From the NCBI GenBank assembly GCA_013115145.1, contig JAAPAO010000399.1, positions 1 to 30,726 on the forward strand: DNA of 30,726 nucleotides, given 5' to 3'. Below the pieces are notes generated by a model, which searched no databases, had not been told where the DNA came from, and worked only from the letters and a program-made list of their open reading frames with translations. Within the stretch, counting starts at the first letter, position 1, and each line of letters starts with the position of its first letter. Position numbers and translations under genes: made by a program. Origin of the DNA: Perkinsus chesapeaki (lineage: Eukaryota > Perkinsozoa > Perkinsida > Perkinsidae). This document shows, piece after piece, positions 2,464 through 30,726 of the stretch.

Positions 2464-5254
2464 ATGTCAGTCTTCCTCGAGGGAGCGCTATTATCAATAC
2501 CGTCACCCAACAACAACCGTCAAGACACTGCCGACTCCTCCCGCTTAGTCGAGAACTTCTTGACAGCATTAAACCAGTCAACCCCGGAGCTCGTAACGCC
2601 TCTCATCAACGCTATATGCGCAAATAAAAGCAAAGAGACGCGGACCGAGTTGCTCAAGTATGTTCGACAACAGTCGCGCCCTGTGCTAGCAGCACCGAAC
2701 GCAACGGACCACAAAGAGATCGATAAGCGCGCAGAGAAACTGGCCTTAATATGCCGAAGGTCGCGTCCTGTGTTCCTTACGTGGATAATCGAGGCACTAC
2801 CAGTTACGTCGCTGCGAATGACTGTGAGAAGACTGGTAGAGTGTTGCAGTTCGCGTCTCGCGGACAAGATGGTAAATTCCCTGCACGGAAGTGTAACGTG
2901 GATCTTAATTGAAGAGCTGATTCTGAAGTTCGCCGACGAAGAGCGGTTCGACTCCCTCGTGAGCCTGCTTGAGAAGCACGAGGTGAAAATTTGTGGCCTA
3001 CTGGAAGATCTGAAACCCATTCCGTCAACAACAGTCATCATCAGTCTCATCGAAAACGGTACACAACGTATGGTGCAGGCTGCAGCAGCTTGCACTATGG
3101 CAGCTTCGGTGGTAGGAAAGAGTAACAGCTACTGGTATTGGGAAAGCCCTTCCAGGCAAAATGCCATATCGTTCACTACGGACCTCCTTCGGCAACTGAG
3201 CACTGTCAATGAAACACCCCTTACCAGTTTTCTAATCGACATTGCTAACAGTGAGCATGGCTCTTGCTTTTTGCGACAAGTGAAAAGTAGCGGTCTTGTG
3301 CCCGACGGTGTGCTCGTGGCAGTGGCGGAGTGGATTCTTCTGAGGACAAGCGTGACGCAGTCTTCTGTCGCATTCGCCCTTGACTTTCTCAAGGAGCTCG
3401 CAAATAAAGAAGGGGCACCTTACTTGAAGAACATTGTCGAAAAACTTCCTACTAGAAGGCTGCCCGAGGCCGCGGTTAGCTGGTGCACGGCCACGACTGA
3501 CGCTGGCCTCTTCGTTATTTTATCTTGCAAAATGAGAAGCGTGCTTCGGGTAAACGCCGATGCTTCGTTGAAAGAGCGTTACACCGATGCCATTGCAGTC
3601 CTTGCTATGCGAGGTTGGAATTGTGATGAGCTCTCACCGCTAGTCTCACGGGAGGCCGCTTTGGCCCAACTCAGCAAACTAAGCGACAGTTTGTCTGTAG
3701 CAAGCATGCAAGGGGGATCACCAATCAGAGACCTCAGCGGTCCCATCTACGCTGAGCTCGCAGTGTCACGGGGTGAACCTGGAAACTTAGAACTCCCCGC
3801 CGGGAAGCCCTTCATGGTCAATGTGCCTCCTGTTGTCTCTTGCGTGTCGAAGCAGGACGCTGAACGTACCCTAGAAAGATTGAAACAACTCTACGGCAGT
3901 AGTCATTACCTTTGGTTAGCCAAGCGATGCCTAGCAGCTTCGCTTGTGGCCAGAGACTGCCCTCCACTATTCGGTCCTGTAAAGCGCACAACGGTGACGG
4001 TACAGGGAGCAACTTTTGAGATTTGTGTCCGTGAAGATGTCCCATGGCAGGGCGTTGCAGGCGAATTGCTTGGCGAGTGTCGAGCAATGACCCCAGGCTG
4101 GTGGTCCACAGTTCTCTACGGGCTCCGCTACTACTCTTCGGAGCAACGCGAGCTTGTCAAATTGTGGGCGACAGTTGTGTTCGGTGGCAACTGTCTGATC
4201 TCATCGTTGGAAAACCGCGTATCCCTCGCCATTCGATCCAAGAAGTCCCGAATGGCCGAGCATGCCGCGACCGCACTTCATATTATTTATGCTGATTTCA
4301 TCAACCCTCACGCGAGCCGAGATTCGGTGTGGATTGGCGAGCGGCGAAGGTTTGTGACGCTTCTTGTTCAAGATGTCGCAAAGGCAGTGCCCGCTAAAGT
4401 TTTGGGCAAATTGCTGGACACTGCGTTACTACTGGGGCCATCTTGTGGCAACCTAAGATGCCTTGCTAATATGATCATTTCTAACCCGAAAACCTCACAT
4501 GAAGCAAGGTAAGCTGACCGCGGTCAATTTTCCGACCCTCGGCGTCTTAGGTATCCCTGTCTTGGCGACGCAAAGCACCGTCGAAGCCGGCAAGTTATAG
4601 TTGAAAGGCTGCTTATTTGGGCGGATGACCTCGTTGAGCAGTCAGCCAAGCAACTGGACGAATGTGGTTTCGTTTCGGGCCATGCGAGCATCGCAGTAGA
4701 AAAGTCGGTGAGGTTTTCGTCTATGCGGGTGAGCTTCTCCGTGGCTTAGTCTATTTCACCGAGTTTTGATGAAGCCGTCAGTTCTGGCGATATTTTTTGA
4801 ACCGCCAAGGCCCGAACGTTTGGCTGCGGTTCTGGGGCTAATAACTGGCCTTTGCAGTGAGACCGGCCTTCCCAGCTTCCCGTTGCTTGTTCAAGTTTGT
4901 TACTTAGAGAATATTCTCACGTTGTTCAAGAATCTGCCAATGCATCGGCATCCCTTGAAATCCTCCATTACAAGTTTGCTGAAAGATTTGCAGACCCGAG
5001 TTGCAGCAGTGGCTCGAAGCACACTCGGAGCCCTCCAGACCTCGAACGTGAGTCTTAAGGTCCTCGGACCACGGTAGGCAATGTTGCTGTCTTAGGCGAT
5101 TGATGAAGTGAGAGAGACTGTTGTATTTGCGTTATCGGCCATGGCGTACGATTGCTCCCACCGACATTCGCTGGTGCAGCAAAGGCAGAGGGTTGCAAAA
5201 CGTTCCACAACGCACGACTCGACGACGGGCCTCGAACCAGCCCCAAAGCGGTGA
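2464..5254 (+). CDS. Large alpha-helical repeat-like protein, function unknown (877 aa, four exons)
   Basis: Proposed exons are 2464-4508, 4551-4707, 4775-5047 and 5096-5254. The first intron (42 nt) has donor GTAAGC and acceptor CTTAG; the last (48 nt) has GTGAGT and CTTAG. Phases join cleanly to a TGA at 5252-5254. The protein is almost entirely predicted helix with repeated Leu-rich amphipathic stretches. Segments such as SEHGSCFLRQV (residues 263-273) and KEGAPYLKNIVEKL loosely resemble Pumilio/NOP9 or ARM/HEAT repeats, so an RNA-binding or scaffold role is possible; this is inference and weak. The second intron is uncertain. A 42-nt intron ending at the typical CTTAG (4708-4749) would hit a stop at 4798, whereas an acceptor at 4774 (67-nt intron) keeps the strongly coding frame that follows (residues FFEPPRPERLAAVLG). 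No signal peptide or membrane segment is seen. Confidence 0.72.
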
Positions 5255-6031
5255 ACTTGCATGCATTTAGTTATGAAGCTTCAAACGTGCAAATGGCACG
5301 TTGTCAGTGACAACTTGTCACCGAGCATTCCATGCCTGTGACAGTTTAACTGTCACAGTTATATATTTAGTGTCAGAACTTCTGGCTCTACTCGCGTCAC
5401 TTTCTGTGCTACAGCGTTATACATTAGCTACGAGCTACATATAGGATATCCACGAGTCAGTGCACTGGCTTTGCGAGCATTACTCTATGTGCTCAAGTTT
5501 CTATGATTACTGCTCTTGTCGCGCTCCATTAAATTCGGGAAAATGATATGTGTGAGGTTCGAACCGAGGTCGTTAATAAGACAATCAGTGCCCATAACTG
5601 CTACGCTAATCAGTCAGACTTTTCGGTTCAAACTCGTAGCTCACCCTCAAGTCTAAAGATCTGCCGATGATTTCTCACCAATCTCAAGCTGGTAGTTCAT
5701 CTCGCCAAGTTGTTCCGGCCAAAACGGTTCCTTCGATCTCGTTATTTGTACTCTAAATAGTTGAGCATTTTCAATGCTTTTGTTTCGTTTAGTTTGTCCA
5801 CGTTTTCCATTGTTCTCTCCATCTTTAACTATTCGTATCCTTTGTATCTACTCTATCTCTTGAAATATTATATAATCCTTTTAATTAAGTTCCTCTATTA
5901 TATAGTCCGTGTTCACTCCTACATCGCCGGCTGATTTCCAGTAATGTATATGAAGCATCCCACGATTAACTCGATTACCTATTCACAAGTTACCCCTCCA
6001 GGTCGCTGTTTGTTATTTTCTCTATATAACG
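5255..6031. other. Intergenic region containing a tRNA-like element
   Basis: No coding exon was recognised. The stretch holds a tRNA-like element on the minus strand (described separately) and T-rich sequence at 5750-5900 that is probably 5' flank of the next gene. Positions 5326-5366 hold short inverted and direct copies of TGTGACAGTTAAC-like words. Confidence 0.4.
5551..5615 (-). repeat. tRNA-like (SINE-type) sequence with A-box and B-box
   Basis: Read on the minus strand, 5608-5590 gives TAGCGTAGCAGTTATGGGC, a good match to a Pol III A-box (TRGCnnAGynGG). 5565-5556 gives GGTTCGAACC, a B-box. The spacing between them fits a tRNA. A short stem around a seven-base loop can be drawn in the anticodon position, but the acceptor ends do not pair, so a working tRNA is unlikely. 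A tRNA-derived retroposon or tRNA pseudogene is the better reading. Confidence 0.45.
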
Positions 6032-13221: not shown

Positions 13222-14260
13222 ATGCTGTTCTTCCGTATTGCTATCCAGCTTATGGCTGTGCATAACCTGGCTGCTCAGGTGAGTCTTTCGTTTCCACCCG
13301 CATCTAGCATCCCAGCGTTTGGTCAGGATAACTGCAGCGCTGTCTGCGATGTTGCTCCTGGTTGTTCTCATCACCCTAGGGGTGATGTTCCGGGGCCTTT
13401 CTGTGACCGGCTCTCGCGTTTTGGTTATCCCGTCTGCTATGGAACGTAAGACAGTCAGGCTTCGTATTATTGATCAACTGGCTTGTGGATGGTAGATTTG
13501 CATCTGGTGCCTCCTCAGGTTCTATACCGACAGCACAAAGACGAGGGTATGTTATGAACCAATATTTTCTATCTGCCCGACAGAATTCCCATTCGCTTGC
13601 GATGACCCGCTTCCTATGCCAAGAACTACAACCACACCTACAACCACACCCACAACCACAACCACAACCACAACCACAACCACAACTACAACTACAACTA
13701 CAACTACAAATACAACTACAACCACAACCACAACTACAACTACAACTACAAATACAACCACAACCACAACTACAACTACAACTACAACTACAACTACAAC
13801 TACAACTACAACTACAACTACAAATACAACTACAACTACAACCACAACCACCGAGCCGCCTGTTGTCACAGTATGCCGGAAGTCGGTCACTGCTCCCTCA
13901 CCCATGCTTTCAGGATTACTGTAAAATCGCATGCGACACTCTCGAGGCTTGTAGACATGCCGAAAAACCTCCAACCTGTGCCCGAGATGCCTGTCATCCT
14001 TATGGGGTGTGTGAGCGAATGTAAGCCTCGAAAGCGATTTCAGCAAATTGGAAATCAAATACGGTGAACTACAAACTCTACTACGGCTTGACAAGGCTTC
14101 ATAATGTGAACGAAGAAGTTTATTGGTTTTCGGTACTGTTTATGTTAGATACTATACCGATTGCACAAAGAGCAAGCTCTGCTACGATACTGAGCTCAGT
14201 CCTTGTGATAAGAGCTATCCGTTCGGCTGCTGTGATCCTGTACCTTGCCGTTCTGAATAA
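13222..14260 (+). CDS. Secreted Cys-rich protein with two copies of a two-exon module joined by a poly-Thr linker
   Basis: Exons: 13222-13278 (signal peptide, MLFFRIAIQLMAVHNLAAQ), 13327-13445, 13519-13870, 13914-14020 and 14149-14260. Phases agree and give 248 aa. Module part a starts each time right after a phase-0 intron: DNCSAVCDVAPGC in copy 1 and DYCKIACDTLEAC in copy 2, both with C-x3-C-x5-C. It ends at a phase-2 intron after VCYG or VCER. Part b is YTDSTKTRVCY...PFACDDPLP in copy 1 and YTDCTKSKLCY...PFGCCDPVP in copy 2, with identical Cys spacing. Copy 1 runs into about 75 residues of nearly pure Thr with a few Asn and Pro, a mucin-like segment probably O-glycosylated. Conserved splice positions and phases show the gene grew by duplication of a two-exon unit. 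The function is unknown; a secreted or surface role is inferred. Confidence 0.82.
13617..13851 (+). repeat. Coding minisatellite (CAACTA/CAACCA/CAAATA) encoding the Thr linker
   Basis: A six-base periodic array of ACAACT/ACAACC/ACAAAT units. In the gene's frame it reads almost only Thr with scattered Asn. It stays open in several frames on both strands (Gln-rich in one plus frame, Val-rich on the minus strand), which explains spurious long open frames here. It should vary in length between strains. Confidence 0.9.
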
Positions 14261-15810: not shown

Positions 15811-18671
15811 TCAAGAGGATAGCTCACTTTTAAGGATCTGATTATGGCCCAGACCGGGCGGCGGCAAGAGCAAGCGGAACCGAGTGGCACGCTTGCCGTT
15901 CCGCTTACATAACTCACCACGAGAACTGAAAGGCGCTACCATTGTTTGCATCATCAAAGCACCAACGATAACTTACCGAGATACAGTCGATGCCTTCTTG
16001 AACGCTTTCTCACGTGAATCACCGGCAGCTGCGCTACTTAGTGTGGACTTGTGGGCCTCATTGCTATCTACGCAAAAGACAACAATCGCACTATCACGAC
16101 GAGAGCTCCTCACTTCGATGTAACGCTGATGCACGGTCGGTATTTTTGTGTCGATCTTCCGCTACTGGAGAGCGACTGTGGTAATGGTGGTGATGGCTGG
16201 GCGCATGATGATAATTAGCCAACCTGCCAAGGGTCGACGACGCAGCCCGCTCGAGTGAGTCATCCGAACTTACTCGAGCAAGCGAAAGTGAGACTCCAAA
16301 TGTGAGGGATGATGACGAATGTAAGAGATGACGCACGGTGGCACAGGGAGCTCACGACTGAAGGCCATGCCACCAACAATCTTAGTGGCTCCTCTGAGGA
16401 TTCTCTGCCTGTCACTTCGAGGCGTAATGTCAGTGTGAAAGCGCGTGGTCGAGGTCGCTAGCCCCATGTCCAAGACCGACATAAACCCGCCGATGTCTTG
16501 CGGCGGTGGCACTACGCGTCCCGCGCTGGCCTGCAGCTCTTCGGCTCGCTTGAGCTCCAGCAAACGGTCTATCTCATCATCAATTAAGGCCTCTACGGTC
16601 AAGTTTCGGTGATCGTCGTAGTGCCAGTCGTCGCGATTTCCCTCGCCGACAGCCTCCCAATAAGTGATGTCGCTATTCTCTTCATCGGAAACTGATGCTT
16701 CTTCTTCGGCTGGGACCGGGCGACTGGTCTCTGGATCGCTAAGATCAGCGAAATCGTCCTCGATCCCCTCGTCTATCACAAAGGAGTCTCTCGGCTCTTG
16801 TTTGACGAGTCGATTAGCGGCAGCAGCCGGCGGTTCTATCCGAACAGGAGACTTGTGCACAGGCCGCGAGCGCGGTCGATTCTTAGGGGTGGAGTCCCGA
16901 GCAGCCTTAGTAGAGGCCAGTGGCGCTTCCACAACGGGACGCAACTGTATGGCTTGCGACGCAGCTATGGCTGATTGAATCTGGTAAAACCGAGATACCC
17001 TTCCAGGCTCGCGCTCGAGCCCTACTGTTATTTTCCGGGCCGGTGGAGGCTCGTCAGAAATGCCAACTAAAACTGGTCGCTTCACTTTAATCCTCGCAGC
17101 TCGACCAATCCGCTCCCTCGGCGGTCTCTGCTGACTTGGACTCCTGTCAGCATTTCCAAGATCCTGCCTGCCTAACAAGAGCGAATTCACAATTCGATGG
17201 CCGTCGAAATTAGCAATACCCTGTCGGGCGGCGGCGGCGGCGGTGTTACAGGCTTTTGGGCTACTGGCCGGCTTGGGGCGCTCTGCCTCCGGCTCGTCCT
17301 CATTAACCGGGCGAGCGTGCTCAACAGGGCGGATTCTCGAGGAGGGAGGCCTAGAAATAGGTCAAGGTCATTTGCGGCGACCGACGCTGTCGTACGCTAA
17401 CTGTATCTTTCTCATAACTGCAACCTTCACAGACTTGGGCATTTTACCGTTCTGACTCCGCCGGCGATAGCGCAGCACTAACGCTCCCAGGGCAGTCTGA
17501 GAATAGTAATAATGCAGGGTGGAAGGATCGAACCTGGGTCGTCTTACGGCCAGAGTGATGACACCCATACCAACCAGCTCCACTGCAGACTCTCTTCGAA
17601 CTCCAGGTGGCGTCATCGGTTCATACGCGTAATCCCAGAATGATTCTGCCGCCTGTCTCGCTAAGGTCCTTACGTATTCGGGGTGCCGGTTGGAATCCTG
17701 GTCGGCCTAAACGATGTCGCTGCCAGGGATCGAACCTCCATCTGGGTCTACCGATCGGAGTAACCGTTCGAGCTGCTCGACAATCGCCAGAGTCGCATCA
17801 TCGTAATTCGCTTGTTCCTATTAGGGGAACTCTGTCATTCGCGACACGTTCAGAGTTTTACCGAGTTGCCCACTGAATCAACGACACTCTGCAGGATGTA
17901 CTGAATAATATCGTGTTCGCTCGCGGCACCAATTTGGGTAAAGTCGTCTGAGACGGAGTGGGCGGGCGGATTTGTGAAATGCCTTACGCTCTTTCTTCCG
18001 AAATAGGTCGTCAACAGCTACGCTAGTACAAGTGGATTCACCAAGCCTGATGCCGTGGCTGCTCCTGGCCCCACCGTAGCTCTGAGGAAGAAACTGATAG
18101 AAAAACCGGAAAATGTATAAAAATAACCGGACCAGGGGTTGTGGGGGGCTTAGGCCGGTATACATGTAACCTCCTCTCTCGTCAACATCAGGAATAGTAA
18201 TTGTCCAGATATTTCCTTCGTCGTCTGAAAGACACGTGTTGTGTCGAAACGGCGATGAGCCACTGCGAATCGATCAACCGTTTCAGATTCTTTCCGGGGT
18301 TGATTTCTCACACCTTCTGGGCTAAGTAAGCCTACCCTGCTAGAATTTGGTTCGAAATGGTATTTCCGCTTCAGCATATCCGAAAAATTCACAAGCGATT
18401 TTCGAATGAATCCCATTCCGAACTCAGACGCTTAGAAGGGGCCTCTTATAGGGGCGAGTCAATGGCGAGATAACAGTGACACTGTTACAGTGTTACGCGA
18501 TGGGGACAGTAGATTGTGCAATTGCAACACAATTACTGTCCCCATCGATGCGATATAATCCTTACCAGTAAAGGAAGCCGCTGAAGACATAACAACAATA
18601 CATACAAACAATACATACAACATTATAATACCATGAGATGACGAAGCGGCGCCGGGTGCCGTTGAAGACAT
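15811..18671 (-). CDS. Multi-exon signal-peptide, single-pass membrane protein with long charged tail; 3' end unresolved
   Basis: Minus-strand exons: 18671-18566 (signal peptide, hydrophobic core IIMLYVLFVCIVVM), 18430-18314, 18224-17988, 17947-17862, 17817-17752, 17706-17548, 17496-17396, then 17350-16274. Intron lengths are 135, 89, 40, 44, 45, 51 and 45 nt, and every phase agrees. The lumenal part includes DDEGNIWTITIPDVDERGGY and helical stretches (YDDATLAIVEQLERLLRS). A transmembrane helix (VELVGMGVITLATALGALVL) is followed by RYRRR, and then about 340 residues of Pro/Arg-rich and acidic disordered tail (FVIDEGIEDDFADLSDPE). No known family was recognised. The 3' end is uncertain: one model splices 16273-16224 out and stops at 16094 (692 aa). 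However, 16161-15977 joined to 15925-15811 (51-nt intron, TGA at 15811) also reads as strongly coding (RKIDTKIPTVHQRYIEVR...), and no phase-correct link to it was found. Confidence 0.65.
17497..17547 (-). repeat. Intron copy B: 51-nt intron with tRNA B-box-like motif
   Basis: The intron begins GTAAGACGACCCAGG and has GGTTCGATCC at 17534-17525, 13 nt from the 5' splice site, and ends TATTCTCAG. It separates VITLA from TALGAL in the transmembrane helix of the minus-strand membrane protein, phase 0. Confidence 0.75.
17707..17751 (-). repeat. Intron copy C: 45-nt intron with tRNA B-box-like motif
   Basis: The intron begins GTAGACCCAGATGGA, has GGTTCGATCCCTGGCAGC from 17736 downward, and ends CATCGTTTAG. 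The flanking exons LERLLRS and ADQDSNR join in phase 0. The intron is almost nothing but the motif and its tail. Confidence 0.78.
18498..18547. repeat. Hairpin inside the first intron of the membrane-protein gene
   Basis: Outer arms CGATGGGGACAGTA (18498-18511) and TACTGTCCCCATCG (18534-18547) are exact inverse complements. Inner arms ATTGTG and CACAAT continue the stem after one unpaired base, around the self-complementary core CAATTG. It lies within the 135-nt intron at 18431-18565. Confidence 0.85.
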
Positions 18672-19549
18672 TGCTAGAATAACTGAACGAAATGAGTAGC
18701 TCGCATTACACTGCTAAAATACACTAATGCGAGCCTTATGTGGTGGACCGATGAGGAGTCGTATTTAAGTAGTGTGAATGGATTGTTGAGCTCCAAGTTA
18801 ATGAGTGCTAAGGACGCAATTTCCTTCGTTCGCACAAGAGACGGAAGAAAATAAAGTTTGCGTTGAGGAAACTCAAGATTGCAAGATTGAATCTTGCTCC
18901 CGGTTTCCGCTCTTTGTAACCACGTCTACTCGATCGTGTGTATTGAATTAGAGACATTTGAATAAGATATTTTAAGGTTGATGCGTGCATTTTGTAGCAG
19001 ATTACTCTGTTATTGAATGGCCGGCCTTCGAAATTATGATTTCCACTTATCCCCACCGAGAGATTACTTTTTGCCGAGTAAGCCTGTGATAAGACCAGGA
19101 GACATTACCAGGAAAAGTAATATAAGCATTATACGCTTAATATACGTAGAGAACATGGTTAATTTATATAGGTACTTTATATAGGTATCTTATATAGGTA
19201 TTTTATATAGGTATTTTAGATAGGTATCTTATATAGGTATTTTATATAGGTATTTTATATAGGTATTTTATATAGGTATTTTATATAGGTATTTTATATA
19301 GGTATTTTGAGAGGAGTATTCTTGTTTGTTTCTTTTTATGTTGATTACAAGCCTTTAGAGGATAATTTCATACTTGGCTCTGAGCCGAACCGGCAGAGGT
19401 CTCCGACTACAGCCTCGTTAATTTTTATATGTCGTAACTGCTCTCTCAGGTGTCTCCCTTGGTGAGGTTGTGAGAATGAAAGAAGGTCATTTAGCTTCGG
19501 AAAAGAGGAGTCCGATGAAATGCTCAATAGGGTGCTGATTATCGTTCAG
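18672..19549. other. Region between divergent genes with an AT-rich minisatellite
   Basis: Upstream flank of the minus-strand membrane protein and of the large plus-strand gene. It contains a 13-bp tandem array (19163-19310). An undetected 5' exon of the plus-strand gene may lie at 19450-19550: SLGEVV-like and NERRSFSFGKEESDEML-like open stretches occur there, but they could not be joined in phase with confidence. Confidence 0.4.
19163..19310. repeat. 13-bp AT-rich minisatellite, about 11 copies
   Basis: Units of TTTTATATAGGTA, with GGTA starting at 19171, 19184, 19197 and every 13 bases up to 19301. Variant units carry TACT, TATC or TTAGATAGG. It probably lies in the promoter, 5' UTR or first intron of the plus-strand gene that follows. 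Confidence 0.92.
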
Positions 19550-22500
19550 GTCATGAGCTTATGTCACAGCAAGACGCACTGTCGAGAGCCAGAAGCGAGC
19601 GGGCCGCGGCTTATCTGAAGGAGACTAATACTCAGTAGTGCAGCCGGGAAGGGGTCTATGGGAGGAGGGGGGAGGGGATGTAGAGTTCCGCACGGCGTAG
19701 ATCTCGCATTATTAAAGTAGAAGAGAATTTGCATAATGGAAAATTTAAAGATTGAGAAAGTATCCGTTCATATCACCTTGTGCGATGCATATAACCAGCA
19801 TAACTTGACTCTCTCGGCGGCCAACCTGAGAGCGGTCGTCCTTCGACAGTATGTGATCGTCCAGTGAATGTGATGGTAATCATTATAGTATCGACTGGTG
19901 GAAATAAAGTGTATTATTGCGAATATGCATTGGCCAAACGACAACCGCAACTCTTTGAGAGGTTTCCTGATTGAGGGGAGTCGGCTTTTCATCGGAGTAG
20001 TACGCCGGCCGAAATTGGCTTTCTTTAATGTCGCTCCGCAAATTTGTTGGAACTCTAGCATTGCTATCTGGCATTAATCTGCATTCTAGGGTGAGCGATA
20101 AGGGCCTCTGGTTGGTTCGTATTCATTGTTGTTCTCAGGCTTCATGAGCAAGCGGAGAAGGTCAATCGCCGAATAGAGGCGGTTGTGGCGGTGGAGCCGC
20201 GGCTTAGTGGTAAGAAAGTCTGCTGGTATTCGGAAGGTCGTGGGTTCAATTCCTGCCACTTTCATTTTATAGAGAATATGAAGCGTCTGGAGCGTCGTTG
20301 TGAGGAGCTTGGGCAAGAACTGCTGGCTGATAAGCATGAAACTGTCGAGGCCAGGCGAGACCTAACCGAGCTCCAGGCTGAGATCGAAGCGGTAAGAGGG
20401 AGGGCTAACGAGATATATATACATTTATAAAATATATTATATATTTCTCCTTGCGTATAAGAAGAGTATAGAACAATAATATTATCTTTGTAGTATTTTA
20501 TGTGTTATTACCACCTATCTGTGGTTAGATGTTTTTCGTTGTTTTGAAATGGTTAGTGCTAACCGTTAGTGATGGGCGTTATGATGATGCAGAGACGAGG
20601 AGCGGTCCTGGATTTATATTTTGTTCTTGTCTTTTTGTTCGGATATCGAATTGGTGTCTATATCGTCACTGGCATTTATAGGTTCCCACGCCATGGACTT
20701 AGCTGCTTCTTTTCGGTATAGGGCCCCACGCCATGGAATTTGAGACTTCTTTTCGGTATAGGGTCCTATCCTCTTCATAAGGAATACTTGCAGCAAAGCC
20801 ATTACGGAAACATCTCAACTTGTGAGTTGATATTTAATTAATAATGGCCACACAGTTATCATTAAAATGCCTTTCGAATGCGGATGTGCATTCCGTGTGT
20901 GGGAAGGGTCTATGATGTTAATCTGTGCTGGCTACTGGTGGCAGCTGAATAGTTAGGTGTTTTAGGAAGTAGCCACTAAGAAGGCCTTGGAACGTGAAGT
21001 GAGCAGTAAGGAATCGTTGAGGAGAAGGCTGATAGAGAAAGGTGGGGGGGGGAGTATCAAATTCAACTTGCAATTGTAGCGTAACCTATTTTCGTATATA
21101 TTTTGACAGTAGTTATTTTTGGTTCGATATTATGCTGATGATCATACGGGATAATTATGTGATTTCACGTTGTTGTAGATGCAATGGATGCCATAGGGTA
21201 TCTGATGGTTGTTGAGGTATCCGCTGTTCAGATGTGGCAGGCAGACGAGGTGACTTGGAGAGGAGGAAGAGTCAAGTTAGACATGAAAGAGCTAATGTTC
21301 ATCAAATTGATAGGAGAGCACAAGGCTTGGCAAAGTACCCTAGCTGGGGATCGAACCTGCGTTGGTAGACTGGGAGGAAAATGCCGGCAGTTTTTCATGA
21401 GTGAAGATTGATAAGTGTAGAGGGACGTTGGCGGCTGTGGAAATGCTGTGGGCGCCTGCGATTGTAGTCGATGGTGACGAATTTTGGGAAGTTCTGGCAA
21501 CGTGTAGACTCGGTAGAAGTGCCATTTCGAAATTGCTAAGATGGATTATTTGTGAAGTCAAATGGAATTTTCAGAACTGATGTGAATCTCTCAAGTCTAT
21601 CCACCACTTCAATGCGATCATGCCTGGAGAAAGCGAGGAAGGAATTCCCTTTCCTCCAGGTAAGGTTGTTGGTTCGATCCCCGGCGGGGGTATTTTAGTG
21701 TTTAGTCGCAGCTCGTTGAGCTAGATCTTGCATGGAAGCGGTTGCCAGAGGAGAGAGCGAAGATACTCGCTCAATCTCAGGAAATGTAATAGGTCAATGC
21801 GGCGGCGGTGGAATCTGTAGGGTCGTCGACGAGTCTTCCGAAAATATGCCTTCCAAGTGTGGAGAACTATTGTAGTAGATAGGCTCCTAGGGGGGCAAGA
21901 AGGGACGTTTGGGAATTTGTGATGCCTCTCTATCACATTCTGGTGGTAGCGCATGACTGGGGGCAATTTCGTGGTCGCCAGAGTGCGGAGAGACATGGTC
22001 TCTTTTTACCAATTTTTGGAGTTTCAGGTCTGCTGGAATAGATACCCCAGAATGCTCCTCCTCACCGATAAATGTAGCAGGAAGGACGGAGGGGATTGAA
22101 AATGCACTCAGAGGGGCTTGGTGAGATTAAGGGGACAGGGACACAATCCTGCCTGGATGGGGTTGACGAGGGCTTCCGCTCAATTTCGCAGTTTCGCCGA
22201 CTACTTGATGATGACTGTGAACCTATGGAATATCTTTGACAGTTGCCGACGCGGGGGGCTGAGGTTTGCTATGATTTCTCGGCATCAGCAATGCTCTCTT
22301 AACCGAGGCTAGCATGTCTCTCTTCGAGGATGCGTCGAATGAATACTGTATGCATGGATAATAATAATATTCTTTATTATTGTTGTTTTGTGGATGATCC
22401 ATCAGTTTGCCTCTCAATCTCCCCTTGAGGTTTCTTACTGGACTTCTTGACAGGTGCCGAATTAGTACTAAGCGCGAAGAGCTGGAGGAGTTGGTGGAGC

Positions 22501-25500
22501 TCGCGGGGGACAGCGATGATGATGATGAGGATGCTGATAGCTCGGAACTCAATGCACAGGATGTAGAAAGGCAAAAGATGCCACCTTGTGCATGCGTGCA
22601 AATTAGGGGTCCCATGTTATAGTGGGAGACGTCTTTGCAGTACTGCGTCCACCCGCGAGGGAGATGGTGGAGTCGCTGTGATGCGGGAAATGTGTTTTGT
22701 AATGAAGCTCGACGGAAGAATTTGACGAAAACGTTGAAGTTAATTTCCACATAATAAATTGCTGAGCAAGGTGACGTGTATAAAACTTATGTACATTATG
22801 GCGAGCATGGTAGAGAATATAATTAGATTATTTCTCATTTGCAGGGACAGTTTTTGTGTTACTCAATTAAGGGACGGAGTTGGGCAAGCTCATCCGGCCA
22901 TTGGGGAATTAGGTTTCGGAGGGTATTAAGGAGTTCCTGAGAGCTGATTATAGATATAATTCACACCGAGCGTTGGTCCGCTTTTCATGATAAGCGCATT
23001 TATCGTTGGAGATGTAATCATTATTTTATGTAGTCAAGTAGCGCCTCTGCCTAGCCGAAGGTCTAGGATGAAGACGAACGACGTAGTCGAGCATCTTATT
23101 ATCATCATTTGGGTTCGTAGGAGTGAAAAATATCGTAAGTTGTTTTCAGTGGGGCTTTTGCATAATGACAACGAGTGCTGCGGGAGTCTCGCAAGTGGCA
23201 AGGTCGAGCAGCGGCGGGAAGCTGCCGAGAATCTCACCATCGGGGAGCGCTATCAACTCTCCGGTAGTCCAGTCCCCTAGAAAGTCGGATGAGGTGATAA
23301 AATGTGGGGGAATAGTAAATATGTGGAGGAAAATGTGGCAGTTGGTGTCTGGGGAAGGAACGAGACATTTCCGTCCCTGTTTCCTATTACAGCCCTCCCC
23401 AGTGAAATAGAATATTCCGTATTATTACGATTTCTCGTTGATTAATAAACGTAAGAGTCTAAAACTTTGTATCGTGGTACTAGAACACATAGTGAGTTGG
23501 CACGTCTGAATCGATCAACCGTTTCATGCCTAGGGGCAAAGATACCGGCGCGCGAGATTATCCGCGCGCGCAGAACTGCCTCACTGAAATAGAATACTTT
23601 ATACTAGTCGACGGTACTCGCCATACTGGAAAACTCAATACTTCGTAATCTGATACTAGGCACTATGAGAGACACACTTTAACATGCTACACGGAAATCT
23701 GAAACTTAATAGTCAACTACCTTCCCTTTCCTCTCGAGAACCGCACACAGTTATTTGCGCATGGACTCTGTGCACTTACCCACAAATCCATCTTCCATTT
23801 CCTCCCAAGCCTTGAAGATAGCAACACGCAGCAGGTCTGCCGATACATACGGTGGGTTTCCAGGCCGATAAACCATCATAGCTTGCTTGCCCCATACATT
23901 TTCGATGGGGTTCAGGTCGGGACTTAATGAGGGCCAGGTGCAAGTAGGCACATCGTGGTCCTCCAACCATTTCTTGGTGCTTGCCGAGGCATGGCAAGGG
24001 GCGTTATCTTGTTGGAATATCATGCCAGGCTCCAAAACGGGAAGGAGGTGGTCAGCTAGGAGCTCCTGATACTTGGCAGAGTTGAGCCGAGTATCGACCA
24101 CTGCCAAGGAGAGCTTCTTGCTGCCACAGATGGCACCCCAGATCATTACTGAACCACCACCAAAGCTTCGTTTCGAACTCACGACAGCTGCAGACTTCGG
24201 AAGCTTCCAGTAATGATACACGCCATCTGGACCATCCAGATTGAACTTTTTTCGTCGGTGAAGACGAAGGTCTTGAAGTCTGTTCCGTCAATGAGATACT
24301 TATTCGCCCACGCTACTCTAGCAGCCTTATGAGTGGCCTTCAAGACCGGCGCCCCTCTAATGGAAGCCCACTCTGCTGCCTCTGACTCAAGAAACCGTCT
24401 TACCGTCTCCCTACCGACAACCAAACCTAGTTCCCTGACCACTCCCGCACAGCTAAGTCCCGGGTCCTGCACCAAAGAACGCACAACACGCCTTTTGTGA
24501 GCTGCAGAAAGCCTCGGCTTGGCCCTGTGGGAAGGTGGGAACTTCCCATCTTCCCAACTGCTGGAATCAACCTTGATGATTGATATGTTGAATTCATTTT
24601 TCTTCGCTGTCTGTTTCCGCTCATCTTTGCACGGTGAAGTGAGTCTGTGGTAGAGGAGGAGCGGTTGAGCTTCGAATGGATGTTCAGGCGGCCCCCGATG
24701 AGGTGTCACCGTTGAGTAAGGTTAACCAGGAGGGATGCTCGGGCGGTAATAAGAAAGTGCCCAACTCGGGGGCTGGCAATAAGGACCAGGTAAAGGGGGG
24801 CATTTGGGGGAAATATGGTATGAAATGTATTGGAAATTGGAGACAAAACTTTGTGTTGAAATATGCAATTGAATTTTATATTTGAGGTAGCTTTCTCTTG
24901 TGGATTCCGGTGGTCAGAAAACAAGTCCTATCCTTACCGGGAGAAAAAAAATGGATAAAGTTCGGATTAGGCACCAGATGGGCCCTTGGGAAGTTGTCGC
25001 TGACTCTCCTCAGAGCAGCGCGGCTAGAGTTGCCCAGGCGAGGGCGGCAGCGGCGCGAACGAGCCGATCGAAAGTTAGGCAACAGCGAGGCGTCAGTGTG
25101 GGGCAAGGAGCACAAAATGGTAATAGGGTTTGGGGAGTATAGATGATTTATTGGATTCAGAATTGGCGGGAACAGTTGGACGAACGCGAACGCTGAGTCC
25201 GCAGGAGGAGGCGAACGAGGGAGGAAAGGGGACGCGGAGATGGTCCGACATGACGAGCGATGAGGACTCTGAGCCGGCTACGTCGAAACTGCGCAAGTTC
25301 GATCCGCCGCGGCGGTCTTTCTCGAGCATTGTTTCTGGAGGGCTGGTGAAGAAGGGCAGTGAGGGAGCGGTCAGTAAGGCTGCTGCTGTTGTGAAGGGGG
25401 GAAGTCCTGTGGGAAGGGCAATGAATGGAGGGAGTAAAACAAAGGGCAGGCAAGGTAATAAAGGAGGGGGTGTTGTAGAAGTATTGAGCATTGCTATATG

Positions 25501-28500
25501 ACAAATGGTTTGAGGAGGATTATCGAAGGCCATTTGGTGTAAAAGTACGATCGATCTCCGAGACCGACGGACAGTTATAGGACTTGGCGACTGCGAATGG
25601 TTGAATGGATTATATTGCACTTGGTTGAAAGTTTGTGAATTTCTAGCGAGGGGCATGTTCCTCGCTTCTTTGAAGATGAATAACTGGCCCGATGAGCAGG
25701 TCACTAAGTCTGAGTAAGCTTGAACTCTTTCTTACTCGGAAGGATTAAGAGCCGTCGGGGCTGGGCGTAAAGAGATAGACCCGCGGTATTGATTTCATTC
25801 ACTTTCTCAGCTAAATCGTGCCGAACCTCAAAGTCTGGCGAAGTTCCGAGTGCGCCGGTGTCGCCACGGGAATCATTGAATGCATCCTTACCTACAATTG
25901 GGATGGTGAAGGCTTGTCCGTGCGAACAGCAAGCTAAAATCAGCAGAGGTGATAGAGGGGTAGGGTTATAAAGATAGTCAGGTAGTTAGGTGGGAAAGGG
26001 AGCGAGCCGAGCCCGACGGCATCGCCAGCGGCTCGCCCGAGCTCGGTTGGCGGGGGAGCAGCGGCGGGGTGTGGCAGCAGTCCTAAGGGAAATAGAGGAA
26101 AGTAATGCTGCGGGTGGGGGAGAGGATACGTGGTTTGGTGAGGGATGAAAAAAATTTCGGAGACTCCTGTGGGCTTCTGTGTCTGGAACATTTTTGAATT
26201 TGAGGCGATGATGTACGTTGGATATTTTTTAATTGGGTTATTGGGAACAGTTGAGTGAGGCGCCGCTGGAATGGAATGAGTTTCTGTTGCGGCGGCAGAG
26301 ACATGACGGATGGGCTGCAAGTTGCAAGCCTTTACGCCCCGAACAAAAGCTGGAGTTCATTTTTCGCGGACAAATCTCATTATTACTCCGTGGTGATACA
26401 AAGATGGCACTCAGAATCTCGCTTCAGCAATCTCGAGTAACGCAGTTTGATGATGCTGGAAGTCTCCCTTTGATAAGCGTTGTTCAGGGCTAGTGGTGTG
26501 GCTGCTACTGCTGCTGCCCAAGGTGGTTCGGCGTTACCTAGCAAGAAGACGACTGCGGTGGCAAAAGGCTCCTCTGCCACAACCACGACGACGTCCACGA
26601 GCGTTGGGGTCAGGAAAGGTGGGGAGGGGAGGACAAGTCCGAGAGGAAGGATGCGGGGGGAGAAGCTGGTCCGGAATGAGATGGAAACAGTTCCTGAGGA
26701 GGGCGAAGTGGATTACGGTGCGGAGAGCATGGAGACGGCACATTGGGCTACGGTAATAATTTTGTGGCGCGTGAAACATCTCTGCGATGGCATTTTCCAA
26801 GGTCCATAATGTCTGCGCATTTCCCTGGTATTACTGTTGCTTAGATGCCTCCAGCTGGCCAGTTCCACCCGCTGCCTGGCTTTTATCCGCCCGGAGCAGT
26901 CCCCCCGATGATGATGTTTCCGGCGCCGGCAGGGTATCCAGCTCCTCCTGGGCCCTATACAGGGATACATATGATGCCTCCTCCACAGGGAGGATTTGGG
27001 CCACTGATGGGTAAGTGGTGGGGTAGGAAGGCGAAGGAGTTGGGGGAAATTTGGTAGAATTCGTCGGGGTACTGTTGATATGATTCATATTTGATCGGGG
27101 AGTATCATATAGAGTGTAGTGCTTTAATATCATTGCTGTCTTCAACGATATAGTAGCAATTGGTATGGAGTAAAGATAAAGGCGCTCTCGAGAGCCAGGA
27201 GCGAGTGGGGCTATTGATTATCATAATAAGAAGTATGCATGTCGAGCAGGCAGTTTTGGGAAGATACTCGTTACTGAAGTTTCACAGAAAACCTTTATTG
27301 TTAAAGCGTCTTGATTTCGCTTCAGTAGTTGAGTGGGGTTCCGCGAATAGGGGAAAAGCTGAGGGCTGTTTGTCAGAATTTGATGGACATTTTTTATCGC
27401 TATTCATATGGTGCCATTTTGAGCGCATCCGTGGATCAGGTAGCTTGCCACCGTTTGAGCACGTGAACAACGGCCCTGAAGCATCGGAGGAGAAATGTGG
27501 GGGGAAGACGACGAAGAAGAAGGGAAGTGGCAGCAAGGGAGGAGGAGGGTCGCAGGCTAAGCAGACGAAGTCGCCGAGGGTTAACCAGGCTGGATGCGCC
27601 GCTGCCAACCCTACAGGGGGGCAGCAGTATCAACTACCTATGTGAGTTGAAGAGGGGCCACATATAGTCCCTATGATGCGTCCGAATTAGTAACATATAT
27701 TATATCACCTCCGCCTTACTACTGCTCTCTTAATGATTGGGTGGGACTTTCCTACTTTGAGGGCGCACTGACTCTCGAATGAGTGATGATGGTTAATAAT
27801 AGTAATATTGTTCATTATTATGGTTCTCCATTGTATTCCTAGCACGCATGCGCATCCTCTTATCGATGTACTCAGGTACGGTCATATCCGTCATCACCCC
27901 ACCGCCACAATCGTTTACACCACCTCTCCCATACCTCAAGACACAACTAGTATAATACTGGTAGGTCTCAGGTTCGATTCCCAGCAACGGTATTTTATCC
28001 CGAAATTCATATGATCTATTCTGAGACTGCACTTGGTTTCATTGCTTTGCCTATCTCGCGAAAGTCTATACCGGGTTTTGGGTTTTGAAAACCCGAAACC
28101 CTTCTAGAAGTTCATGGAGAACCAACGTGTGCATTCCCTTGTCGTAGGTGCCCATGTCCAACCCCCATCAACAGGGGGCTGGTCGGCCTGCTGGTATCCC
28201 CATTATGCCACTGGCATACCCGCCACCGATGCCGGCTCAATTCGACACATCTTACTTTGATGGAGGTGACTACTCACCTCCGAGCCCGCCAATCACTCAT
28301 CCTCCTAGCGGCCCTCAGAGTCTGAGGTGAGGGCGAGTTTTGTGGCGCGCGGGAGGTTTGGTTGTAGGTCTGTTCGTACGCATTCTGTTGCATCAGAAGC
28401 CAGCTTTGATGGCACCCGACCGGTCACAGTGTGCGTTGACAGGAACGCTTTTAAGTCCTGGTTCGACACCGACGTAAGCTTCACCTGTTTGGGCGGTTTT

Positions 28501-30470: not shown

Positions 30471-30632
30471 TTATTCGGCTGGGAGTCGTAGTGGAACAAC
30501 AGGTGTGTCGGTGTTAACCTTCTCGGGAGCGGTCTCTGAACTTGAACTAGTCATATTAACAGACAATGCACTTGTTGACACTTGAACAACAGCACTGCCT
30601 ACAGTGATGGCCACGCTGAGCTTGTGGGACAT
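30471..30632 (-). CDS. Possible small secreted or truncated protein at the window edge
   Basis: From an ATG at 30632 the minus strand encodes 53 aa. A short hydrophobic start (KLSVAITVGSAVV) could be a weak signal peptide, followed by a Ser/Thr/Pro-rich polar tail ending PLRLPAE. The start lies in the first copy of the 68-bp tandem repeat, so the true 5' end may be an exon beyond the window. No family was recognised. Confidence 0.35.
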   Translation of the reverse strand: MSHKLSVAITVGSAVVQVSTSALSVNMTSSSSETAPEKVNTDTPVVPLRLPAE

Positions 30633-30726
30633 CACGGCACAATAGCTTTCAAAACAACAGCACTGCCTACAGTGATGGCCACGCTGAGCTTGTGGGACAT
30701 CACGGCACAATAGCTTTCAAAACAAA
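30585..30726. repeat. 68-bp exact tandem duplication running off the window
   Basis: Copy 1 is 30585-30652, copy 2 is 30653-30720, and the last six bases begin a third copy (AACAA). The core is AACAACAGCACTGCCTACAG. No differences between the two copies were seen. The period is not a multiple of three, so it would shift a reading frame that crosses it. Confidence 0.9.

What the first reader, a model, noticed from the sequence alone, without database searches (positions are those of the whole stretch)
17497..28147. A family of short introns carrying a tRNA B-box-like motif: candidate tRNA-derived introner
GGTTCGATCC (or one-base variants) occurs at 17525-17534, 17727-17736, 20243-20253, 21348-21357, 21671-21680 and 27971-27981. 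All six lie in introns of two oppositely oriented neighbouring genes, and the five sense copies are in introns whose flanking exons join in phase. In four of these the motif begins 10, 11, 13 and 15 nt after the 5' splice site; the shared layout is GTARG...CAGGTTCGATYCC, then CAGC, then a TATTTTAG-like end. Several introns (45, 46, 51 nt) are hardly more than this unit. Introners, mobile elements that create introns, are known in dinoflagellates, the sister group of perkinsids. A version built on the 3' part of a tRNA would be a new type and a direct link between Pol III promoters and intron birth.
Basis: partly seen in the sequence, partly recalled or inferred. Interest (0 to 1): 0.88.

Follow-up and report, generated by a model that had tools for sequence, protein, structure and literature searches.

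The report
tRNA-tail repeats serving as short introns
A Perkinsus-like parasite genome carries many copies of a tiny repeat that looks like the tail half of a tRNA gene, and a good share of them, in either direction, make up almost a whole short intron, which hints at a new route by which introns could arise.

Summary
GGTTCGATYCC occurs 863 times in this 35.4-Mb genome against 28 for the reversed pattern. With the tRNA 3' end and T-run added (GGTTCGATYCC N9 YATTTT, up to 2 mismatches) there are 1601 against 35. The shared unit matches tRNA positions ~42-73 plus a Pol III-type terminator. Only 19 of 130 studied copies have an A-box match, and some of those are true tRNA genes.

Many copies nearly fill a short GT-AG intron, in both orientations. 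Ten such introns are supported by a Pfam match running across the junction (3 sense, 7 antisense; 20 of 87 candidates were tested). Selected element introns (40-72 nt) are about as short as the 12 introns of the one gene read in full (43-51 nt).

Whether the element creates introns is open. A potassium-channel comparison fits gain. Three tandem PAP2 paralogues share one intron position but carry a sense element, an antisense element and no element. I found no target-site duplication and no T-stem covariation. No RNA evidence was available. Tied to tRNA and introner-like: supported. Proven mobile introner: not.

The parts
17497..17547 (-). 51-nt GT-AG intron candidate with sense element; motif 17524-17534
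   Evidence: open frames 150 and 126 nt on either side; read again
17707..17751 (-). 45-nt GT-AG intron candidate with sense element; motif 17726-17736
   Evidence: open frames 66 and 150 nt
20210..20272 (+). 63-nt GT-AG intron candidate with sense element (GGTTCAATTCC) ending TTTTATAG; motif 20243-20253
   Evidence: open frames 115 and 149 nt
21660..21705 (+). 46-nt GT-AG intron candidate with sense element, GTAAG at -11; motif 21671-21681
   Evidence: open frames 120 and 81 nt; listed in the genome-wide GTAAG search as C333:21660-21681
27961..28147 (+). 187-nt intron candidate; element flush with the 5' splice site (GTAGG at -10), 3' splice site far downstream; motif 27971-27981
   Evidence: joined frame open 120 nt on both sides tested
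21347..21357 (-). element copy antisense to the + strand gene; intron not resolved
   Evidence: motif, profile score 32.4
5555..5565 (-). further profile match outside the reported region
   Evidence: profile score 25.5; intron status not tested
25296..25306 (+). further profile match within the reported region
   Evidence: profile score 23.3; intron status not tested

Best explanation
A dispersed non-coding repeat of about 37-46 bp, descended from the 3' half of a tRNA gene (from the anticodon or variable loop to A73 and the Pol III terminator), is spread through this perkinsid genome. Where copies lie in genes they behave as introner-like units: the element is nearly the whole intron. Sense: AAG/AAGG ahead of the B box completes a GTAAG 5' splice site, and the terminator T-run plus AG gives the pyrimidine tract and 3' splice site. 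Antisense: the A-run gives GTAA(A)ATG as 5' splice site, and a YAG beyond the other end is the 3' splice site. Shown by sequence: the family, its tRNA 3'-half layout, its flush position in short intron candidates in both orientations, and domain-level support for ten of them. Inferred: that splicing happens, that copies spread by retroposition or transposition, and that insertions in many cases made the intron rather than landing in an older one.
For: Counts 863 v 28, 237 v 0, 1601 v 35. Around 130 copies, 5' splice-site words (GTA[AG] or GTGAG) number 42 at -20..-9 v 12.5 expected but 56 v 52 at -70..-21; antisense 19 at -18..-16 v 3.1; YAG at +25..+27 24 v 11. GTAAGN{2,16}GGTTCGATYCC 59 v 10 for the scrambled word GAATG, with 14 of 59 at -17 and 15 of 59 at -11. 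Open-frame intron candidates 50 sense and 37 antisense v 14-25 and 17-21 in three random sets. Pfam matches run across ten junctions; two of these, in CCT4 and CCT8, also read by hand. Element introns 40-72 nt v 43-51 nt for 12 CCT5 introns. Potassium channel: element intron in the C5 gene, four paralogue matches run through that point.
Against: PAP2 paralogues share an intron position with opposite elements or none. No target-site duplication. No recent near-identical copies other than tRNA genes. T-stem pairs do not covary. AA after the T-run is as enriched as AG (17 v 7.3 and 14 v 5.8). Three of the ten Pfam-supported introns (sense PAP2_C, Kelch, RRM) are multiples of three without an in-frame stop, so read-through cannot be excluded for them (phases worked out by hand). 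At least half of the 130 copies have no high-scoring short intron (52 chosen). No RNA data.
Confidence: 0.55

Rival explanations
1. An old tRNA-derived short repeat (SINE fragment) inserted into introns that already existed; pressure for introns of about 45 nt then trimmed the old sequence until the element filled the intron. The element marks introns but does not make them.
For: PAP2 paralogues A, B and C share the exact intron position with a sense element, an antisense element and a ~350-nt intron without a profile match. The window's 27961-28147 intron keeps 187 nt.
Against: No clear class of copies with the 5' splice site 21-70 nt upstream, which untrimmed insertions should leave (56 v 52 expected). 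Four potassium-channel paralogue matches lack the intron.
Confidence: 0.3
2. The copies are kept as TFIIIC or Pol III sites (ETC-like sites or small RNA genes) inside introns, and selection on B box and terminator explains why these parts stay while the rest is random.
For: B box and T-run are kept while tRNA 66-71 is near random, and T-stem pairs vary independently.
Against: Copies were found through the B box, so its conservation is partly selected by the search; 19 of 130 have an A-box match; splice sites lie flush with both ends, which this does not predict.
Confidence: 0.1
3. The motif is a splicing signal (enhancer or branch-point type) of this lineage and only looks like a tRNA.
For: Strong association with short introns.
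Against: It occurs in both orientations (31 sense and 21 antisense among the chosen introns), and the spacing to A73 and the T-run is that of a tRNA 3' end.
Confidence: 0.03
4. Chance matches and ordinary tRNA genes or pseudogenes.
For: Some matches are true tRNA genes.
Against: Only 2 tRNAs pass Rfam's threshold in 130.7 kb that holds 69 of the 130 copies, and the reversed-pattern control is about 30-fold lower.
Confidence: 0.02

Closest known systems
Introners / introner-like elements (PMC9860276, section 7 and passages seen)
   Same: Dispersed repeats that fill introns of about 30 nt upward; splice sites carried by the element or taken from the insertion site; some families lack duplications and inverted repeats
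   Different: Here built on a tRNA 3' half, found in both orientations, copies strongly diverged; no empty site shown. The words SINE and tRNA do not occur in that paper's main text
Amoebophrya introner elements (PMC7789003, passages seen)
   Same: Introns made of repeats in a relative of dinoflagellates
   Different: Those are mostly non-canonical introns with inverted and direct repeats; here GT-AG, with no duplication signal
tRNA-derived SINEs (recalled)
   Same: tRNA sequence, Pol III promoter part and T-run
   Different: Usually the 5' head with A and B boxes plus body and tail; here only the 3' half, no body
Extra TFIIIC (ETC) sites (recalled)
   Same: B box without a tRNA gene
   Different: Recalled as few and not introns; here well over a thousand matches with a terminator at tRNA spacing and splice sites at the ends

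Membership tests
Introner | Repeat family whose copies coincide with introns | tested here: met
   splicing itself is inferred from frames and protein domains
Introner | Insertion creates the intron (empty site in relatives or paralogues) | tested here: inconclusive
   potassium channel fits gain; PAP2 paralogues speak for an older intron position
Introner | Target-site duplication or terminal inverted repeats (present in many, not all, families; PMC9860276) | tested here: not met
   no excess of direct repeats at 31 sense and 21 antisense junction pairs; terminal inverted repeats were not tested separately
Introner | High similarity between copies, showing recent spread | tested here: not met
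   best non-tRNA pairs share at most 21 of 30 bases outside the core
tRNA-derived SINE | A box and B box of a tRNA head | tested here: not met
   A-box regex at the right distance in 19 of 130, at least 5 of them tRNA genes
tRNA-derived SINE | tRNA-derived sequence with Pol III terminator | tested here: met
   fixed spacing B box - A73 - T-run
tRNA gene | Passes covariance-model threshold, cloverleaf | tested here: not met
   2 tRNAs in 130.7 kb; T-stem pairs not covarying

The most novel reading that the evidence does not exclude
The 3' half of a tRNA gene is by itself a near-ready intron and has become an introner: the anticodon-loop GU-AA (tRNA 35-38) is the 5' splice site, the Pol III terminator is the pyrimidine tract before AG, and the reverse complement also works through its A-run. 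A Pol III gene fragment thus made hundreds of spliceosomal introns in one lineage.
Probability: 0.35. Interest if true: 0.88.

Novelty: new variant of a known kind. Interest (0 to 1): 0.72.

Why it matters
In the survey I read in part (PMC9860276), introner families are tied to DNA transposons where they can be assigned. A family built on half a tRNA would link Pol III genes to the birth of spliceosomal introns, show how little sequence an insertion needs in order to be spliced in either direction, and give a clear test case in a lineage with dense short introns. It can be tested directly with RNA reads and sister genomes.

Tried and rejected
Ordinary tRNA genes and chance were rejected as a general account. 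A full tRNA-like SINE with A box was considered because three window copies seem, by eye, to have an A box upstream; those stretches read as open coding frames and the copies show no conserved sequence beyond about -10, so I take the resemblance as coincidence. A kept T-arm fold was rejected by the missing covariation. Target-site duplications were sought and not found. A longer left end (ATCGAAAGGTC type) was found in only 11 of 130 copies, although the GTAAG class at -17 agrees with it. SYF1 and UCH: the Pfam match lies on one side of the junction, so they are not counted. Two peptides that I thought recognisable (glycosyltransferase-like, DUF900-like) had no Pfam match, nor had six more. 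rRNA-based identification did not complete. The Pfam check used 20 of 87 spliced peptides, chosen by eye for resemblance to known domains, so its success rate is no estimate for the rest. The 295-kb sample was largely chosen around listed motif hits and is enriched for exact copies; the 87 peptides include copies counted in both orientations. A DUF726 search found only the gene itself, so no paralogue test was possible there.

Full report
Organism. The window is contig C333 of an unnamed 35.4-Mb assembly in 884 contigs. CCGTAGCCATYTTGGCTCAAG has 8 exact places, all reading CATCTTGG, and 9 with one mismatch; that is the P. marinus 22-nt spliced leader quoted in PMC9399869 (passages seen). A hand-read CCT5 protein is 69-71% identical to the named dinoflagellate proteins I looked at in the listing; unnamed ones reach 74%, and the top-scoring row bears the name Trichinella spiralis at 56%. 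I take the host to be a Perkinsus species or close relative. P. marinus introns are reported as 39-1622 bp, mostly under 100 (PMC3101222, passages seen).

The observation. All six sites exist; the window has 12 matches at up to one mismatch against 3.25 expected. Genome-wide, GGTTCGATYCC occurs 437+426 times against 18+10 for the reversed pattern. Adding N{9,14}ATTTT gives 112+125 against 0, and all but 9 of the listed places have one spacing: 11 motif letters, 10 letters, ATTTT. In tRNA numbering that is 52-62, 63-72, A73 and a T-run. At up to two mismatches there are 787+814 against 22+13. If mismatches fall independently over the 17 sites, about 1566 copies set against roughly 210 exact ones (my estimate; one search does not split its count) would mean some 2,700 copies. 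That is a model figure, not a count.

What the unit is. In 295 kb held a profile finds 130 copies, 79 of them with the exact motif. Outside the B box C48 (86%) and G46 (69%) stand out, then C72 (60%), A73 (54%) and the T-run (56-69%); tRNA 66-71 carries at most 0.22 bits per column. These columns were part of the search profile, and one search counted some places on both strands, so the figures are rough. Upstream of about -10 little is conserved. An A-box regex matches at the right distance in 19 of 130; 5 of these are ARAGORN tRNA genes and a sixth (L054) equals one of them over the 30 bases compared. Rfam passes 2 tRNAs in 130.7 kb; 62 tRNA matches were scored genome-wide, a lower bound. 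So the unit is the 3' half of a tRNA plus terminator. The outer T-stem pairs show no covariation (z -1.9, 0.1, -0.4). Recent copying from many working tRNAs should have left some. I cannot explain this; great age, or halves that drift or were joined independently, are possible.

Introns. Twelve introns of CCT5 are 43-51 nt. Around the 130 copies, GTA[AG] or GTGAG numbers 42 at -20..-9 against 12.5 expected, but 56 against 52 at -70..-21. Read antisense it numbers 19 at -18..-16 against 3.1. YAG at +25..+27 numbers 24 against 11. After the T-run, AG occurs 14 times against 5.8, AC 11 against 6.7, but AA also 17 against 7.3 (100 copies). Introns of 34-75 nt with a frame open at least 60 nt on both sides were found for 50 sense and 37 antisense copies, against 14-25 and 17-21 for three random sets (some copies are in both lists). 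Keeping the better orientation and a high score leaves 31 sense and 21 antisense introns of 40-72 nt.

Homology support. Of 87 spliced peptides I sent 20, picked by eye, to Pfam; 12 had a match. The match runs across the junction in ten. Sense: DUF726 (GTAAGCGAAAGGTCCCTGGTTCGAATCTATGCAAGTACATTTTTAG, 46 nt), topoisomerase I fragment (42 nt), PAP2_C (60 nt). Antisense: PAP2_C (45), Kelch (51), Ion_trans_2 (71), poly(A) polymerase (53), RRM (51), CCT4 (47), CCT8 (50; 22 bits, under the family's own cut-off). The two CCT introns were also read by hand (subunit names from recall). SYF1 and UCH matches lie on one side of the junction. By my hand-worked phases, keeping the sense PAP2_C, Kelch or RRM intron would leave no stop in frame, so these three rest on domain fit alone; the other seven would shift the frame or bring a stop.

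Genome-wide splice-site association. GTAAGN{2,16}GGTTCGATYCC occurs 59 times against 10 for the scrambled word GAATG. My count over the list: 14 of 59 have GTAAG at -17 (type GTAAGCGAAAGGTCCCTGG) and 15 of 59 at -11 (type GTAAGGTCGTGG). With even gaps, any one gap holding 14 or more has probability 0.00035. With a five-base variable loop, -17 places GU at tRNA 35-36 and AA at 37-38; this numbering is inference.

Does the element make the intron? For: element and intron lengths agree, and there is no clear class of copies with a distant 5' splice site. In the potassium-channel gene the element intron splits the C5 gene, while matches on C187 (two), C828 and C446 run through that point without extra length (the C446 match passes it by only five residues, and a C1 match ends there and is undecided). 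Against: three tandem PAP2 paralogues in L015 share the exact position (TTA T|), with a sense element, an antisense element, and a ~350-nt intron without a profile match. Five more PAP2_C places (C124 three, C4 two) match across the region with no room for an intron, so losses or gains occurred as well. No target-site duplication, no fresh copies. Creation is likely in some cases; insertion into, or replacement of, an older intron happened in at least one, unless two insertions hit the same site.

How it likely works. A short non-autonomous element with half a tRNA gene was copied around. In a gene, the T-run next to AG can serve as pyrimidine tract and 3' splice site, and AAGG-type sequence before the B box completes GTAAG. 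In reverse, the A-run gives GTAAAATG. Insertions that splice cleanly survive. The copying machinery is unknown, and the divergence suggests an old family.

Known families. Introners are described from 175 genomes; some families show duplications (49 of 130) or inverted repeats (72 of 177) of DNA transposons, others lack them (PMC9860276, section 7 and passages seen). Amoebophrya introners are mostly non-canonical introns with inverted repeats (PMC7789003, passages). Paper searches, in an open-access library only, listed nothing that I recognised as a tRNA-derived introner; for most hits I saw only the listing. The element works like an introner. Full membership stays open, since creation of the intron is not shown.

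Noticed in passing
G000:C48:18185-36311 (L024, L025): Fifteen exact GGTTCGATYCC places within 18 kb of one contig (one search list), where the genome average would give about 0.4.
   Followed up: partly
130 element copies in held loci: tRNA 49-51 and 63-65 triplets are each tRNA-like in composition but vary independently, as if halves were reshuffled or drift under a site-wise constraint.
   Followed up: partly
L015:700-7500: Three tandem PAP2_C paralogues with one intron position and three different intron contents: a natural test case for intron turnover.
   Followed up: partly
window 19163-19308: Tandem array of TTTATATAGGTAT, 13 bp x 11.2.
   Followed up: no
window 13624-13848: Hexamer array AACTAC x 37.5.
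   Followed up: no
window 30585-30725: Perfect 68-bp tandem repeat, 2.1 copies, at the contig end.
   Followed up: no
window 2945-2955: GGTTCGACTCC lies inside a 685-codon open frame on the + strand, so a motif match is not always an intron element.
   Followed up: no
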